Shown: positions 49,134 to 55,727 of the stretch, piece after piece
How the letters are laid out: each line of letters begins with the position of its first letter
How positions within the stretch are numbered: position 1 is the stretch's first letter
DNA from: Candidatus Methanofrustulum fimipullorum
Lineage (GTDB): Archaea; Halobacteriota; Methanosarcinia; Methanosarcinales; Methanosarcinaceae
NCBI GenBank assembly: GCA_012518265.1
Contig: JAAYST010000048.1
Coordinates: forward strand, 1-64,000
DNA length: 64,000 nt
Direction: 5' to 3'
Notes under the pieces: generated by a model
The model's input: only the letters and a program-made list of their open reading frames with translations
Told to the model about the DNA's origin: nothing
Database searches by the model: none
Translations under genes and position numbers: made by a program

Positions 49134-49540
49134 GTGAATACCATTTCAATTTATTTAATATAAGTTACAAGTATAAATTCAAAAAGGTAACCTAAAAACT
49201 ATAACCATATATTAATGGAGTTTACATTTCACCCTTAACAAAATGAAAGATTGAAACGATTAAAAAATATATTCAATATATTCAAAATGTTTTTGCATTT
49301 TGTTTTGTTTTTGTTTCGTGTTTTGTTTTGAAACGTTTGATTATATTTGAAAATCATTAAAACCTTTAATTCATTAACGGATAAAATTTAAACCGGGTCA
49401 ATTATTGACCTGATGCAATCATAACAATAAACTATAAAAAGCTATAGCATAATGTTATCACGTTTTTTGCATATAAAAATGCAATAGATAACAGCCTTTA
49501 GGATATATAAATATATTGTGATTAAAAAAGCTAACATACA

Positions 49541-49630
49541 AATAAATCAAAAAATAAATCAAAAAATAAATCAAAAAATAAATCAAAAAATAAATCAAAA
49601 AATAAATCAAAAAATAAATTAAAAAATAAA
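49541..49630. repeat. 12-bp tandem array
   Basis: AAATAAATCAAA repeats about seven times with almost no variation, the last copy having T for C. It is a recent slippage product. Confidence 0.9.
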
Positions 49631-49677
49631 AATGGAAAAAATGATTAAATGAAGGACTGTAAAAAAACACGCAGCAA

Positions 49678-49960
49678 CCGTTAAAATCCTAAAAATGAAT
49701 AAAACGGAACTGCCGTTAAAATCCTAAAAATCAACAAAAAAACGAACCCCTAGAAAATCCCAAAAGGCGCCGCACCCCAAGAAATAAAACGGGTGCGACC
49801 GTTAAAATCCTAAAAATTAGGAAAAAACGTGGCAACCGCTAAAATCCTAAAAATTAGGAAAAAACGTGGCAACCGTTAAAATCTAAAAATTAGAAAAACA
49901 AACCCGAAAAAATTCCAAAAGGCGCCGCACCGCAAAAAAAAAACGGGTGCAACATTTTTC
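49678..49960. repeat. Interspersed repeat field with GC-rich hairpins
   Basis: CCGTTAAAATCCTAAAAAT or a close variant begins at 49678, 49711, 49800, 49837 and 49874. Copies three and four extend the identity for 37 bp. Two copies of a second element, AAAAGGCGCCGCACC with a downstream ACGGGTGC that can pair back to GCACC(C), lie at about 49760-49798 and 49917-49951. Spacing is irregular and there are no unique equal-length spacers, so this is not CRISPR. It may encode structured RNA. Confidence 0.75.
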
Positions 49961-50178: not shown

Positions 50179-53100
50179 TCATTTTTTAAACAGTTTTTCC
50201 AGTTTGTATTTGTATTCTTTTGCCATACCGGATGCGACTTCTTTATAGTTTTGGGAGTTTGCCCCGCGAACGGACATTCCGTATACGATCAAACCGGCAA
50301 AAGCAATTATAAGAAGGAACACAAGGATCAAAAATACTATAAGTAATATTTTCAAATAGTACATAAAAGAAGAACCTTTTTCTACTGAAATATTACTAAT
50401 TTCCGACGGAACCGAAACTGAATTTTCGCCTTCTGTTATGGAAATTACATATGTTCCTTCTTTTTTGGGCGTGAATTCAAATTCGACTGTTGTATTTTCA
50501 TCGGGTTTTAAAGAAACTTCTTTCGATTTGTTGAAAACTTCTCCGTCTTCTGAAGATATTACAACTCTTACATCAGTTTTACCTTCTTCAACACCCTCGT
50601 TTGAAACTTTGAACATCAGTTTAAGTGAGTTGTAAGAAGTGGGAGACTCAGGATTAATTGAGAATTCGTCAAAAACGAATTTTGCGGCTCTTTCATTTAC
50701 GAGAATAGATGTTTTTTCCGTATTGTATTTCGATTTTGATACGGAAATTTCAATCGTTCCGGGGTTGTTGAATGTGTATTCAACTTCACCGTTTGAATCC
50801 GTTTTAAGAGTTTGCCCTTCAATTGTAACTGTGGCATCGGATATTCCGGAGCCGGATTTTTCATCGGTCACACGAATTTTTGCGCCCGTTTCGGCATAAA
50901 TCGAATCGGAAGGTGAAAGTGTAACTGACATATTTCCTATGTCTTCTCGAACGGTAACGCGGCGAGTTGTCGAGTTGTAGCCGTCTTTTTCAGCTTTGAT
51001 ATTGTACGAACCGACACGTTCCGGTTTATAAGTCAATTTACCTGAAGAATCCGTCTTTCCGATAAGTGTGCTGTTTTCATAAACAGATGCGTCTTCAATA
51101 TAATTCGAACCCGCCTTTACCGTAACGGTTGCCGACTGCCCCAACAATATTGACGATTGAAGTGAAATTGACAAATTGTTGGTATCTTTCTTGTCGGTTT
51201 TTGTCGTGTTGTTGTGCGTAAACGGATAGAAGCGAAGTGTGTTTGAATCTCCTACTTTAAACGAAAGTGTAGTATTTCCAACTTCCATAAAGTCTACAGA
51301 GTCTCCTGCAGACAAAGTCAAACTGTCATCGTTTTTCAAAGTAATTGAAGATGCATCGGAAGAGTCAACTTCCATTTTACCAAACGAATCCTCTCTTTCA
51401 ATTTTAGTTAATTTGTCAGATATTTGGAAAATACCGCGAACCGTAATAGTATTGCTTTCCGCTCCTTGGAAAATACTGTCGATGTAAAGAGCAATGTAGG
51501 AAACATCGTCGGTGTCCCCCATCTTCTTTTCAAAAGTAACAGTGCTTCCCGAACTAACCGTTTCCGAATCAATCGACTTGTTATTCTTTAAAAGCTCGAG
51601 ACGAACCGTATCTCCTTTGAGATTTATATCGCTAATTTTAACAGTATAACCTTCTTCAAATTTCAAAGATTGTCCGGTTTTTAAATCGTATTTATCACTG
51701 TTGTCAATTAAAACTTTAGACAAATTGCCATCAGAGAGAAGACTTACTTCTTTTGCATTAATATTTGAGTTTTTCGTGTAACCTGCGAAATATTTCTCGC
51801 CCATGAAATTTATAACTCTGTAACTGCCCCATGCGGATTTAGAGAAATCAACGTCAACCGCTTGTGCTTTATAAACGAGAGATCCGTCGGAAATCTTTCT
51901 GGAACCGTCCCATTTATCAAAGTATAACATTTCCGTAGATTCAATATCGTCGTCAATGTCGTATGCCAAACCTTCAAAGTTGTAAGGCGTCCATTTTGTA
52001 ACACGGCTTGATGCCGGTGCGTCTGCATCATAGACTGTTCCTCTCAATTCGAGTTTTGTTGTATTATTTTCAACAACTCTTGGAGCAAATCTAAGTTTTT
52101 TGTTGTTGTCGGCCACAATAAATTCAATATTGTCCATGAGTTTTATCGTGTTACCTGCAGAAAGAGTTATATCTTTACTGTTCTCCATTTCGATGAAAAA
52201 TCTTCCGTTATTGTTTTTACCGTGGTCGGTAACTTCCATCGAACCGGATTTAAAGCCGTCTGAAATTACAATCGGCTTTGAAGAAAGTTGAAAGACCCCT
52301 CGAATCGTAACGGTACTTGATTCAGTTCCCTGAAATATACTGTCAACATTGACGACAATAGTAGTTATGTCTTCTCCATTTATCCTTTTAGTAAATGCAC
52401 CTGTGCCTCCCGAAGACGAAACAAACGAACCTACGTCTTTTCCGTTTTCGAGTATCGTAAAGCGTGCACTGTCACCTTGGATATTGATATCGTCTACTTT
52501 AAGTTTATAACCGTCGCTTAAGTTTAAGGATTGTCCGACTCTAAGGTCGTGTTTTTCATTTTCATCCGTTAAAACTTTCAGAATAAATCCTTCACTTAAA
52601 ATATCTTTTCCTTCATATTCGAAATTTGTATTGGAAGTATAACCTGCAAAGTAGCGATCAGCCATGAAACCGATTACATCGTACGAACCCCAAGCAGATC
52701 TTTCAAAGTCTACAGGAACTGATTGCGTTTGATAAACAAGTTCCCCTTCTCTGATTTTTCTATCTGAACTGCTCAAACCTGGGTGTTTAAGGACCATGCG
52801 TTCAGTTCCTTCTCCGGTATCGATATTATAATAGAATCCCGAAAATGACAAATAATCCCATGTAAATTCGTCGGAACTTTCACCTTCTCTCCAAATGCGG
52901 TCTCCTGTACTCGGAACGGCAGATTTGGTTATAGAGAGATTCCATTTCAATTCGCCAACAGCGCCACCTGTTCCTTTTTGTGTTGCTTTTGCAACAAGGA
53001 CAAATTCTCCTTCGGTGTTATGAGATTGTGCAAATATTGATTTTCTTGCTTCGTCTTTCGGATTTTTGGGGAATTCTTTGACGAGTTTGTTGTCTTTAGT

Positions 53101-53880
53101 GTAAAGATACCAAGTAAAAGTCGAATCGACAGTAGTTACTGCATTGACATTGATTGCAGCTCCGGGACGCAACTTTATAACAGCCGTATTGGACGTCGAT
53201 TTATCGAGGTCGAACATCTTTAAATCGGACCATTGTGCATAAAGAACCGTGTTTTTGTCAATATTAAAAGTTTTGTCCGGAGCGTAAGCCGTTCCGGTTC
53301 CGTCCGCTTTTGTATTCCAGCCGACAAATACTTTACCTTCGAGTTTGAAATTGTTGGCAAGGATTTTAACTGTCGAGTTTAAATCATATTTTTGGGGATC
53401 GGACATATTTCCGATTCCGCCGTTTGCGTTATACGACAAAGTATAAGACGTGGAAGCTTCAGATTGTTTGGAAGAAGTTTCAGATTCAATCGGCTTGAAC
53501 GAAGGCTTCTCGGATTCAACCGGTTTGGAAGATGGCTCAGATTCAGAAGGAGCGGAAGATGGATCAGACTCCAAAGGAGCAGAAGATGGATCAGACTCCG
53601 AAGGAGCAGAAGATGGATCAGACTCCGAAGGAGCAGAAGATGGATCAGACTCCAAAGGAGCAGAAGGAGACTCGGATGCCGTATTTTCATCCGATGAACC
53701 GACCAAATCTTCCGATTCAACGCTTCCGCTTATAGAATAACTCAGGATGTTTAAAGAATCGTTTAAATTATTGTCTAAATCCGAAACACCGAGTGCGGGT
53801 ATTGCGGCGAATGCTGTTAAAGACAACAATGCGACAAACAAGAGCACGAGATAAATCGGATTCTTCATAGATTTTGTCAT
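50179..53880 (-). CDS. Large S-layer-type surface protein with membrane anchor
   Basis: This 1233-residue exported protein has a signal peptide (MKNPIYLVLLFVALLSLTAF, cleavage near 30). A tandem repeat tail follows (ESDPSSAP units, about 75-125). Next come an InlB B-repeat/Listeria-Bacteroides-type domain (about 147-217: FVGWNTKADGTG, TVLYAQW) and two copies of the methanosarcinal S-layer duplication domain at about 325-560 and 625-860 (WDYLSFSGFYYNID; WTPYNFEGLAYDID). Two or three Ig/PEGA-like modules lie at about 900-1150, and a membrane helix at about 1173-1200 has a basic cytoplasmic tail. It is a probable AglB substrate. It stands alone between a terminator and a long promoter region. 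Confidence 0.88.
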   Translation of the reverse strand: MTKSMKNPIYLVLLFVALLSLTAFAAIPALGVSDLDNNLNDSLNILSYSISGSVESEDLVGSSDENTASESPSAPLESDPSSAPSESDPSSAPSESDPSSAPLESDPSSAPSESEPSSKPVESEKPSFKPIESETSSKQSEASTSYTLSYNANGGIGNMSDPQKYDLNSTVKILANNFKLEGKVFVGWNTKADGTGTAYAPDKTFNIDKNTVLYAQWSDLKMFDLDKSTSNTAVIKLRPGAAINVNAVTTVDSTFTWYLYTKDNKLVKEFPKNPKDEARKSIFAQSHNTEGEFVLVAKATQKGTGGAVGELKWNLSITKSAVPSTGDRIWREGESSDEFTWDYLSFSGFYYNIDTGEGTERMVLKHPGLSSSDRKIREGELVYQTQSVPVDFERSAWGSYDVIGFMADRYFAGYTSNTNFEYEGKDILSEGFILKVLTDENEKHDLRVGQSLNLSDGYKLKVDDINIQGDSARFTILENGKDVGSFVSSSGGTGAFTKRINGEDITTIVVNVDSIFQGTESSTVTIRGVFQLSSKPIVISDGFKSGSMEVTDHGKNNNGRFFIEMENSKDITLSAGNTIKLMDNIEFIVADNNKKLRFAPRVVENNTTKLELRGTVYDADAPASSRVTKWTPYNFEGLAYDIDDDIESTEMLYFDKWDGSRKISDGSLVYKAQAVDVDFSKSAWGSYRVINFMGEKYFAGYTKNSNINAKEVSLLSDGNLSKVLIDNSDKYDLKTGQSLKFEEGYTVKISDINLKGDTVRLELLKNNKSIDSETVSSGSTVTFEKKMGDTDDVSYIALYIDSIFQGAESNTITVRGIFQISDKLTKIEREDSFGKMEVDSSDASSITLKNDDSLTLSAGDSVDFMEVGNTTLSFKVGDSNTLRFYPFTHNNTTKTDKKDTNNLSISLQSSILLGQSATVTVKAGSNYIEDASVYENSTLIGKTDSSGKLTYKPERVGSYNIKAEKDGYNSTTRRVTVREDIGNMSVTLSPSDSIYAETGAKIRVTDEKSGSGISDATVTIEGQTLKTDSNGEVEYTFNNPGTIEISVSKSKYNTEKTSILVNERAAKFVFDEFSINPESPTSYNSLKLMFKVSNEGVEEGKTDVRVVISSEDGEVFNKSKEVSLKPDENTTVEFEFTPKKEGTYVISITEGENSVSVPSEISNISVEKGSSFMYYLKILLIVFLILVFLLIIAFAGLIVYGMSVRGANSQNYKEVASGMAKEYKYKLEKLFKK
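53525..53690 (-). repeat. 24-bp coding minisatellite in the surface protein
   Basis: On the plus strand the unit GAAGATGGATCAGACTCC plus RAAGGA is repeated about five times with few changes and encodes ESDPSSAP on the minus strand. The length is a multiple of three, so copy-number change keeps the frame. Confidence 0.85.
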
Positions 53881-54320: not shown

Positions 54321-55727
54321 TTAAAAAGAAGAATACCCGTCGCATTTAAGTTTTTTTGAATTTCCGTCTTTTGAATGCAAATATATCCCGGAAAACTCGT
54401 CAGAAACTTGACCGATTATATGAATCGGACAAGGATATTTATGAGACATAAATGTCGGGAAATGAACAGGATTAAAATTTGCTATTTTTATTTTGTTTCG
54501 GCTGCCGGAAAAATCTTCAAGATTAAATGAAAAATTTGAAAACGTCTCCAACTTGTCCGGATTTATTGTAAACAAAAGCTCAAAATCGCCACCGCCAAAA
54601 AGAGCGTAATTGTATAAAACGGAATAAAAATCCGAGTCGGATTTTTTAGAATTGTCCGGATTTGAATTTTCAGAATTCAAAAGTCCCGCAAATTTTATCA
54701 AATCATCGGACAAAGGAATTAAATCTTCATATATTTTAAAACCTAAATTAGATTCCGAATACAAATTATAAAGAGAAATTGAAAGGCTGTCGCTTGTATC
54801 GGTCATGGAAGTCGCAATACCGGAATTTGCTATGGCTTTGCCTTCAAAAACACGAGGAACGGGCAAATAAAGATTATTTAAAAACGTGTGAAGGGGTCCG
54901 GTTTCGGTTTCTGTTTTGTTTGGGGTTCCGGTTTTGTTTTCAGTTTTGTTTTCGGTTTCAGTTCCGTTTTTGGTTTCGTTTTTGGTTTCGTTTTTGGTTT
55001 CATTATTGGTTTCGTTATTGGCCTCGTTATTAGTTTCGTTTTTCAAATACTCGTTGTTGGAAAAATTGCCTGATAAATCGTTTTTAAGAATAATATCTAG
55101 AGCAAGGGCGGAATTTCCGGGGAACCCGGAAACACAAATTAAATCGCCCGGGGCGGCACCTGAGCGAGTCAGATATTTGTTTTTGGAAACTTTTCCAATC
55201 GCCGTTCCGACAACAGTTAGCTCTTGGTGATTGTCGGTATCGCCGCCCGATACAAAACAATTGTAAACGGAATTACAATCACGAACTCCTTTTGCAAAAT
55301 CGATTGCCAAATCTAACGGCAAGTCTTCAGGAAATCCGACATTCAATAAAAAACCGATCGGATCGGCACCCATTGAAGCAATGTCACTCAAATTTACTGC
55401 CGCAGACATCCAACCGCGTTTCCAATAATCCATATCGGCAGGAAAATCCGTTTTTTCACGAAGCATATCAGTTCCGCAAACAATTAATTCATCTTTAAAA
55501 GATGAAGTGTCTAAAACGGCGCAATCGTCGCTTTTACCGGAAAAAAAATCAATAGAACCGGAGATGTCGGAGGTGGAGGTGGCGGGGGCATCACAGGTAT
55601 CGACGGTTTCGGTTGAAAACGGCTCAGGTATTTTGGAAAAAATAAGAGAATGTTCACCTCTTTTTGAAAATATTTTCAAAAAGAGTTCGATTAAACCTCG
55701 TTCACCGACCGATCCGACTGTCTTCAA
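54321..55727 (-). CDS. thiL: Thiamine-monophosphate kinase ThiL with Asn/Glu/Thr insert
   Basis: ThiL phosphorylates thiamine monophosphate to the diphosphate. The 468-residue protein has the AIR-synthase-like fold: KSDDCAVLD near 65, CGTDMLREKTDFP near 84, DIASMGADPIGFLLNVG near 115 and FVSGGDTDNH near 158. An insert at about 228-280 made of NETKNETKNET and ENKTENKTG repeats interrupts the fold in a surface region. It is encoded by GTTTCGTTTTTG-type repeats on the plus strand (54900-55050). Typical ThiL is about 310-340 residues, so this insert, an acidic Ser-rich stretch near 345 and a long N-terminus account for the excess. Confidence 0.9.
   Translation of the reverse strand: MKTVGSVGERGLIELFLKIFSKRGEHSLIFSKIPEPFSTETVDTCDAPATSTSDISGSIDFFSGKSDDCAVLDTSSFKDELIVCGTDMLREKTDFPADMDYWKRGWMSAAVNLSDIASMGADPIGFLLNVGFPEDLPLDLAIDFAKGVRDCNSVYNCFVSGGDTDNHQELTVVGTAIGKVSKNKYLTRSGAAPGDLICVSGFPGNSALALDIILKNDLSGNFSNNEYLKNETNNEANNETNNETKNETKNETKNGTETENKTENKTGTPNKTETETGPLHTFLNNLYLPVPRVFEGKAIANSGIATSMTDTSDSLSISLYNLYSESNLGFKIYEDLIPLSDDLIKFAGLLNSENSNPDNSKKSDSDFYSVLYNYALFGGGDFELLFTINPDKLETFSNFSFNLEDFSGSRNKIKIANFNPVHFPTFMSHKYPCPIHIIGQVSDEFSGIYLHSKDGNSKKLKCDGYSSF

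What the first reader, a model, noticed from the sequence alone, without database searches (positions are those of the whole stretch)
50179..53880. Mosaic surface protein: InlB-type B-repeat joined to methanosarcinal S-layer domains and a membrane anchor
The B-repeat fold (FVGWNTKADGTG, TVLYAQW) is typical of bacterial cell-surface adhesins, while the two S-layer duplication domains are typical of Methanosarcina. A Ser/Pro/Glu minisatellite stalk precedes them. A host-associated methanogen may use it as an adhesin displayed through the S-layer. The B-repeat could have been acquired from gut bacteria.
Basis: partly seen in the sequence, partly recalled or inferred. Interest (0 to 1): 0.5.

Follow-up and report, generated by a model that had tools for sequence, protein, structure and literature searches.

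The report
Gut archaeon's S-layer protein with B-repeat
A gut methanogen carries a long-conserved secondary cell-coat (S-layer) protein whose outer tip has been remodelled to carry a small bacterial-type domain; it is a plausible adhesin but probably not the main coat protein, and what it binds is untested.

Summary
ORF 50179-53880 (-), 1233 aa: signal-like segment, Ser/Pro/Glu tail, one InlB-type B-repeat, Ig-like domain, two PF07752 S-layer domains, Ig-like stem, TM helix. The genome belongs to the mch-less intestinal clade of Methanosarcinaceae, so host association is well supported. The protein is not of the main (SlmA1) S-layer type; a separate 707-aa gene is. It is the orthologue of a long S-layer paralogue that sits next to thiL in 17 of 19 other sampled orthologues, 12 of them from genomes outside the gut clade (probably MA0068/Mbar_A1034/MM1364). 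Only the outer N-terminus is new: a B-repeat in genus g1 (2 species), FN3-, PKD- or Ig-like or unassigned sequence elsewhere. The 'stalk' lies distal to the B-repeat and is absent from the other g1 species. The nearest B-repeats are bacterial, up to 53% identical and often from ruminant guts, but the domain tree is unresolved. B-repeat adhesin-like proteins of gut Methanosarcinales are published; my searches found no report of this fusion. Adhesion is inferred. Noticed in passing: a dockerin-like tail, specific to this genome among 111, on the other six B-repeat proteins.

The parts
50179..53880 (-). whole ORF, 1233 aa (P0001), thiL-linked S-layer paralogue with N-terminal B-repeat
53788..53880 (-). 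N-terminal hydrophobic segment, signal-peptide-like (about residues 1-31); cleavage site not predicted
   Evidence: sequence; aligned with the N-termini of orthologues
53455..53703 (-). Ser/Pro/Glu-rich low-complexity tail, residues 60-142, 27-bp repeats; absent from the G027 orthologue
53233..53445 (-). InlB-type B-repeat, Flg_new PF09479, residues 146-216
   Evidence: a profile of 11 B-repeats led by this one hits InlB chains 2y5p and 1m9s; model pLDDT above 90 in this part
52906..53229 (-). Ig-like domain, residues 218-325, aligned with sister-genus orthologues and weakly with the others
   Evidence: alignment, regional identity; low-confidence model
52108..52881 (-). first S-layer (DUF1608/PF07752) domain
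   Evidence: 230.7 bits
51283..52008 (-). second S-layer (DUF1608/PF07752) domain
   Evidence: 260.6 bits; matches MA0829 structure 3u2g, E 2.6e-25
50401..51180 (-). stem of Ig-like domains (CarboxypepD_reg, Filamin/CARDB), residues 901-1160
50284..50355 (-). transmembrane helix, about residues 1176-1199, followed by a basic tail
54321..55727 (-). thiL (thiamine-phosphate kinase), the conserved upstream neighbour that marks orthology
   Evidence: TIGR01379 207.1 bits against cut-off 184.15; adjacency in relatives

Best explanation
It is the thiL-linked long S-layer protein of the Methanosarcinaceae (probably the MA0068/Mbar_A1034/MM1364 type, a minor component), whose outermost N-terminal module was replaced by an InlB-type B-repeat in the ancestor of this gut genus. 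Mode of action: the protein is exported, the two DUF1608 domains take a place in or beside the S-layer lattice formed by the SlmA1-type protein, the Ig-like stem and TM helix tie it to the membrane, and the N-terminus (Ig domain, B-repeat, and here an acidic Ser/Pro/Glu tail) faces outward, where the B-repeat most likely takes part in contact with the host surface, its mucus or neighbouring microbes. Shown: anatomy, orthology, linkage to thiL, that it is not of SlmA1 type, that among the 20 orthologues scanned the B-repeat is confined to genus g1. Inferred: single replacement, position in the lattice, low abundance, outward display, adhesion.
For: Two S-layer domains and a B-repeat over their Pfam cut-offs; C-terminal TM. 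S-layer tree of 45 proteins: the window pairs with the G027 orthologue (99*) and stands apart from the SlmA1-type clade (100*), which holds the genome's own 707-aa C4 protein. That C4 protein reads ADDSIELRS after its hydrophobic segment, like the ADSVEIR mature end of Mbar_A1758, and matches MA0829 more strongly (E 1.1e-44 against 2.6e-25). thiL lies directly upstream on the same strand in 17 of the 19 other orthologues of A1. Flg_new is in 2, fn3 in 6 and PKD in 3 of 20 orthologues; in the six scanned singly such N-terminal hits lie before the S-layer domains (the fn3 hit of L141 is under its cut-off). Identity to the window is 216-287 of 538-565 in the S-layer core, against 5-28 of 69-103 in the Ig region. 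Flg_new is in 2 of 26 S-layer ORFs of the eight gut genomes. Published: MA0068 and Mbar_A1034, 1167 and 1161 aa, one TM, two DUF1608 domains, transcripts 1.8 and 1.7% of SlmA1.
Against: No binding, expression or localisation data. Equation with MA0068 rests on length, domain count and TM, not on a sequence comparison with that named protein. One B-repeat only. The G027 B-repeat is diverged (33.2 bits; 25 of 70 identical), and the free domain tree pairs it with another B-repeat of the window's genome (88), not with the window's own, though holding the two together is not rejected (p-AU 0.814). The Ig-like reading of residues 218-325 rests on alignment and a low-confidence model.
Confidence: 0.62

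Rival explanations
1. The B-repeat is not a binding module but a structural cap or spacer: the outer N-terminus of this S-layer paralogue is under weak constraint and collects whatever small beta domain is at hand (FN3, PKD, Ig, B-repeat), with no adhesive role.
For: N-terminal modules differ between genera; low identity of the whole N-terminal part; the B-repeat of the sister species is diverged and the Ser/Pro/Glu tail is absent there.
Against: The domain family is present in 8 of 8 gut genomes and 6 of 103 other family genomes, and a B-repeat sits at the same place in both g1 species; both fit a selected role better than drift.
Confidence: 0.27
2. Transfer of the B-repeat from gut bacteria straight into this gene. 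This is about origin and can hold together with the best explanation.
For: The eight best blastp matches of the window domain among 151 other B-repeats are all bacterial, up to 53%; 6 of the first 8 rows bear ruminant-gut titles.
Against: The tree leaves 82 of 148 inner branches open and no starred set holds the window row. Paenibacillus and Chryseobacterium domains, not from guts by their titles, reach 51%, and a genome outside the gut clade (G043) has one at 47%. A common origin with the diverged G027 domain is not rejected, so the event may predate the genus.
Confidence: 0.3
3. It is the main S-layer protein of this species, remodelled for gut life.
For: It has the highest PF07752 scores of the three S-layer genes found in this incomplete genome.
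Against: The score may reflect closeness of the thiL-linked family to the Pfam profile; the SlmA1-type clade (100*) holds the C4 protein instead, with the SlmA1-like mature start and the stronger MA0829 match.
Confidence: 0.06

Closest known systems
Methanosarcina S-layer paralogues MA0068 / Mbar_A1034 / MM1364 (Rohlin 2012, PMC3361143)
   Same: Two DUF1608 domains, one TM, 1161-1167 aa (table); the two g13 orthologues in A1 have 1145 and 1161 aa and sit next to thiL
   Different: No B-repeat in the 12 orthologues scanned from genomes outside the gut clade; correspondence to the named genes is by length and architecture only
SlmA1 / MA0829, major S-layer protein (structure 3u2g)
   Same: Tandem DUF1608 domains, TM anchor; sequence match to 3u2g
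   Different: Separate clade; SlmA1 has signal peptide, tandem DUF1608 and a linker of about 60 residues, without the N-terminal extension
Flg_new (PF09479) adhesin-like proteins of Methanimicrococcus blatticola (PMC9723798, passages read)
   Same: Same domain family, gained in gut Methanosarcinales, proposed adhesion
   Different: No passage read mentions an S-layer domain in the same protein; here the domain sits on an inherited S-layer protein
Listeria InlB B-repeat (2y5p, 1m9s, 7pv9)
   Same: Profile match E 3.6e-5 to 2y5p; Foldseek pairs the modelled domain with 7pv9 at rank 3, rmsd 3.2 over 78 columns, probability 1.00 but E 0.094
   Different: No leucine-rich-repeat or GW family among the 25 Pfam families shown; different anchor

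Membership tests
Methanosarcinales S-layer proteins (DUF1608/PF07752) | tandem DUF1608 domains over the curated cut-off | tested here: met
   471.8 bits, two stretches, cut-off 30
Methanosarcinales S-layer proteins (DUF1608/PF07752) | C-terminal transmembrane anchor | tested here: met
   hydropathy peak at about residues 1176-1199
Methanosarcinales S-layer proteins (DUF1608/PF07752) | cleaved signal peptide | tested here: inconclusive
   hydrophobic N-terminus by eye and alignment; no signal-peptide predictor run
Major S-layer protein SlmA1 (MA0829 type) | falls in the SlmA1-type clade | tested here: not met
   S-layer tree: SlmA1-type clade 100* excludes the window protein
Major S-layer protein SlmA1 (MA0829 type) | most abundant envelope protein | not testable with these tools
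   needs proteomics or transcripts
thiL-linked long S-layer paralogue | immediate downstream neighbour of thiL, same strand | tested here: met
   window 54321-55727 thiL; 17 of 19 other orthologues
InlB-type B-repeat (Flg_new, PF09479) | match over Pfam gathering score | tested here: met
   47.1 bits, cut-off 27
InlB-type B-repeat (NCBIfam TIGR02543) | match over NCBIfam cut-off | tested here: not met
   17.7 bits, cut-off 20.95
InlB-type B-repeat (Flg_new, PF09479) | B-repeat fold | tested here: inconclusive
   confident model of this part; InlB 7pv9 at rank 3 (E 0.094) behind a Treponema sialidase (E 0.0048, rmsd 13.4), and no row at E <= 0.001
Adhesin | binds a host or microbial ligand | not testable with these tools
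   no binding data

The most novel reading that the evidence does not exclude
The outer N-terminus of the thiL-linked S-layer paralogue is a family-wide display slot: each lineage threads its own contact module (FN3, PKD, Ig, B-repeat) onto one inherited, lattice-borne, membrane-tied carrier. In this gut genus the slot holds a bacterial-type B-repeat, and in this species it works beside a second route in which the other B-repeat proteins carry a dockerin-like C-terminal tail, so that two separate systems put the same kind of domain on one archaeal surface.
Probability: 0.25. Interest if true: 0.58.

Novelty: new variant of a known kind. Interest (0 to 1): 0.36.

Why it matters
Gut Methanosarcinaceae lost motility and many genes for surface glycans and are thought to hold on to gut surfaces (passages), but the passages I read report no tested adhesin in them. 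A conserved S-layer protein with a lineage-specific outer tip is a concrete single-gene candidate, with orthologues lacking the B-repeat in the sister genus as a natural control. If true it would show how an archaeon adapts an old coat protein to a host by changing one outer module.

Tried and rejected
Main S-layer protein: disfavoured by the S-layer tree. Assembly chimera: disfavoured, since G027 has the same order in another assembly. Fusion common in the family: among the matches listed I saw S-layer and Flg_new in one ORF only in G000 and G027, but the lists are truncated ('more matches are not listed'), so other family genomes are not fully excluded. In the eight gut genomes 2 of 26 S-layer ORFs have it. 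The G010:C4:74760 match (23.2 bits, below cut-off) was left out of the 26.

Donor of the B-repeat: not resolved. For the tree, two B-repeat fragments under 60 aa were dropped (75 to 73). The tree was made with the quick search; the test found a tree of 45 log units higher likelihood that this search had missed.

Window protein as receptor of the dockerin-like tail: considered, no support (no cohesin among the Pfam families shown for it, and no PF00963 match in G000; its Ig domain also exists in genomes without this tail). Structure of the whole protein: not obtained. A scan of genome contigs with the full protein confirmed no relative.
Full report
WHAT IS THERE. The ORF at 50179-53880 (-) is real and uninterrupted. 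Order from the N-terminus: hydrophobic signal-like segment; Ser/Pro/Glu tail (residues 60-142, 67% S+P+E, net charge -14; 27-bp repeats); B-repeat 146-216 (PF09479, E 2.7e-12); Ig-like domain 218-325; two S-layer domains (PF07752, E 5.5e-142); an Ig-like stem; TM helix at about 1176-1199; basic tail. The 'stalk' is on the outer side of the B-repeat, so it cannot be what lifts the B-repeat outward; it is missing in the sister species.

WHOSE GENOME. The window is G000:C99:1-64000 of a 1.51-Mb draft in 108 contigs, 80.9% complete. Of 111 genomes of the family, mch (PF02289) is missing in all 8 of g1 (G000, G027) and g6 (G010-G015), and present in 100 of the other 103 (missing also in G016, G104, G107). 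Protasov et al. [quoted passage not shown] So the organism is most likely an intestinal Methanosarcinaceae. The eight drafts are 57-93% complete, so single absences are weak but the pattern is not.

WHAT IT IS RELATED TO. The full protein finds matches in all 111 family genomes. I aligned 20 orthologues from 12 of the 14 family genera (A1): 8 from the gut clade and 12 from genomes with mch. thiL (TIGR01379 over cut-off in the window and in L148) lies directly upstream on the same strand in 17 of the 19 others; L140 (G027) has no thiL match on its 13-kb contig and L159 stops at its contig end. A tree of 45 S-layer cores (quick method, SH-aLRT only) gives: window plus G027 (99*); the six g6 orthologues (100*); 13 thiL-type proteins from outside the gut clade with one extra paralogue (99*); a third clade of eight gut-genome paralogues (100*); and an SlmA1-type clade (100*) holding the genome's own 707-aa C4 protein. 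Three long branches (L137, L166, L167) are unsure. The eight gut thiL-type proteins are one side of a branch only with support 30, so their joint origin within the gut clade is not shown.

NOT THE SlmA1-TYPE PROTEIN. Rohlin et al. 2012 (PMC3361143; three of four parts of the text plus passages) found one SlmA1 protein dominant in each strain (MA0829, Mbar_A1758), with paralogues at a few percent or less of its transcript. Their table lists MA0068 (1167 aa), Mbar_A1034 (1161 aa) and MM1364 (1164 aa), each with two DUF1608 domains and one TM (another long one, MA0957 with 1196 aa, has no TM); MA0068 and Mbar_A1034 transcripts were about 1.8 and 1.7% of SlmA1. By length and architecture these are the likely named counterparts of the thiL-linked family; I did not compare sequences with them. 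In this genome the C4 protein carries an SlmA1-like mature start (ADDSIELRS, against ADSVEIR) and matches the MA0829 structure 3u2g better than the window protein does (E 1.1e-44 against 2.6e-25). The third S-layer gene, on C29, matches 3u2g at E 1.6e-13.

WHAT IS NEW IN IT. Only the outer N-terminus. Within the S-layer core the window shares 216-239 of 538-561 residues with orthologues outside g1 and 287 of 565 with G027; in the Ig region 5-28 of 69-103. Pfam on the 20 orthologues at E 0.01: Flg_new in 2, fn3 in 6, PKD in 3. Of six scanned singly, fn3 in L151 and PKD in L154 lie before the S-layer domains, L141 has an fn3 hit there under its cut-off, L144 and L147 have Ig-like hits, and L140 has the B-repeat. 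The B-repeat of the sister species is diverged (33.2 bits; 25 of 70 identical). The free domain tree pairs it with another B-repeat of G000 (88), but a tree holding it with the window domain has a higher likelihood and is not rejected (p-AU 0.814). One replacement in the ancestor of g1 is the simplest reading, not a shown one.

WHERE THE B-REPEAT CAME FROM. Flg_new occurs in 8 of 8 gut genomes and 6 of the 103 others (five g10, one g11), and in 0 of 14 control genomes. The eight best matches of the window domain among 151 other B-repeats are bacterial, up to 53%. A scan of named genomes kept 79 loci, 78 bacterial and one Methanomethylophilus; 6 of the first 8 rows bear ruminant-gut titles, but Paenibacillus and Chryseobacterium also reach 51%. 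On plasmids 18 records matched, at 33.8-43.0%. The tree of 152 domains and 75 columns is largely unresolved. A bacterial source is plausible; a gut-bacterial donor for this gene is not shown.

FOLD. A profile of 11 B-repeats led by the window's matches InlB 2y5p at E 3.6e-5. A model of residues 130-345 is confident for the B-repeat only (mean pLDDT 70.3). Foldseek ranks a Treponema sialidase first (E 0.0048, rmsd 13.4) and InlB 7pv9 third (E 0.094, rmsd 3.2, probability 1.00); no row reaches E 0.001.

LITERATURE. Thomas et al. 2021 (PMC9723798, passages) report 16 acquired Flg_new proteins in M. blatticola, among putative adhesin-like proteins, and retained major S-layer proteins. PMC7883539 (mSystems 2021, passages) counts such repeats in Methanomassiliicoccales. 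Searches for the combination led me to no passage describing a B-repeat fused to S-layer domains; I read passages of a few of the listed papers only, the library is open-access only, and supplements were not read.

MECHANISM AND VERDICT. Most likely a minor, lattice-borne, membrane-tied carrier with a contact module at its tip. Binding is inferred from the domain family and the gut distribution. The finding is a new variant of a known kind, with modest interest. A side observation may deserve its own look: a profile of the C-termini of the six other B-repeat ORFs hits 15 places in G000 (those six by construction, so nine more) and none in the other 110 genomes. In the 11 loci where a simple motif search worked, the motif ends exactly three residues before the stop; in 4 it found nothing. 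Dockerin_1 itself is common in the family (61 of 111 genomes) and is over cut-off at three of these places in G000, but in the six ORFs it appears only once, at E 0.031. The best solved-structure match is a cellulosomal dockerin, E 0.001 in all with no single stretch better than 0.82. No cohesin was found in G000, against 68 of 111 genomes with one; G000 is 19% incomplete.

Noticed in passing
L173-L178 (G000 C52, C15, C40, C88, C35, C26), C-terminal 66 aa: The other six B-repeat ORFs of the genome share a dockerin-like C-terminal tail; its profile hits 15 places in G000 (these six included) and none in 110 other family genomes at E 0.001, while no cohesin is found in G000.
   Followed up: partly
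window 54893-55043, inside thiL 54321-55727 (-): thiL carries a low-complexity Asn-Glu-Thr/Lys insert with 12-bp repeats; it is 468 aa against 340 aa in L148, and TIGR01379 matches in two stretches.
   Followed up: no
window 49540-49898: AT-rich repeats downstream of the S-layer gene: a 12-bp unit 7.6 times and a 37-bp unit 3.1 times.
   Followed up: no
L168 (G010:C4:204000-223000): Three SlmA1-type S-layer genes in tandem in one gut genome, two of them in a separate sub-clade shared with one of G014.
   Followed up: no
L160-L165, L166, L137: A third clade of S-layer paralogues, found here in eight ORFs of gut genomes; genomes outside the gut clade were not sampled for it.
   Followed up: no
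L054 (G043:C1:2226633-2229173): A genome outside the gut clade has a 1772-aa open frame with eleven B-repeats, so B-repeats in this family are not limited to the gut clade.
   Followed up: no
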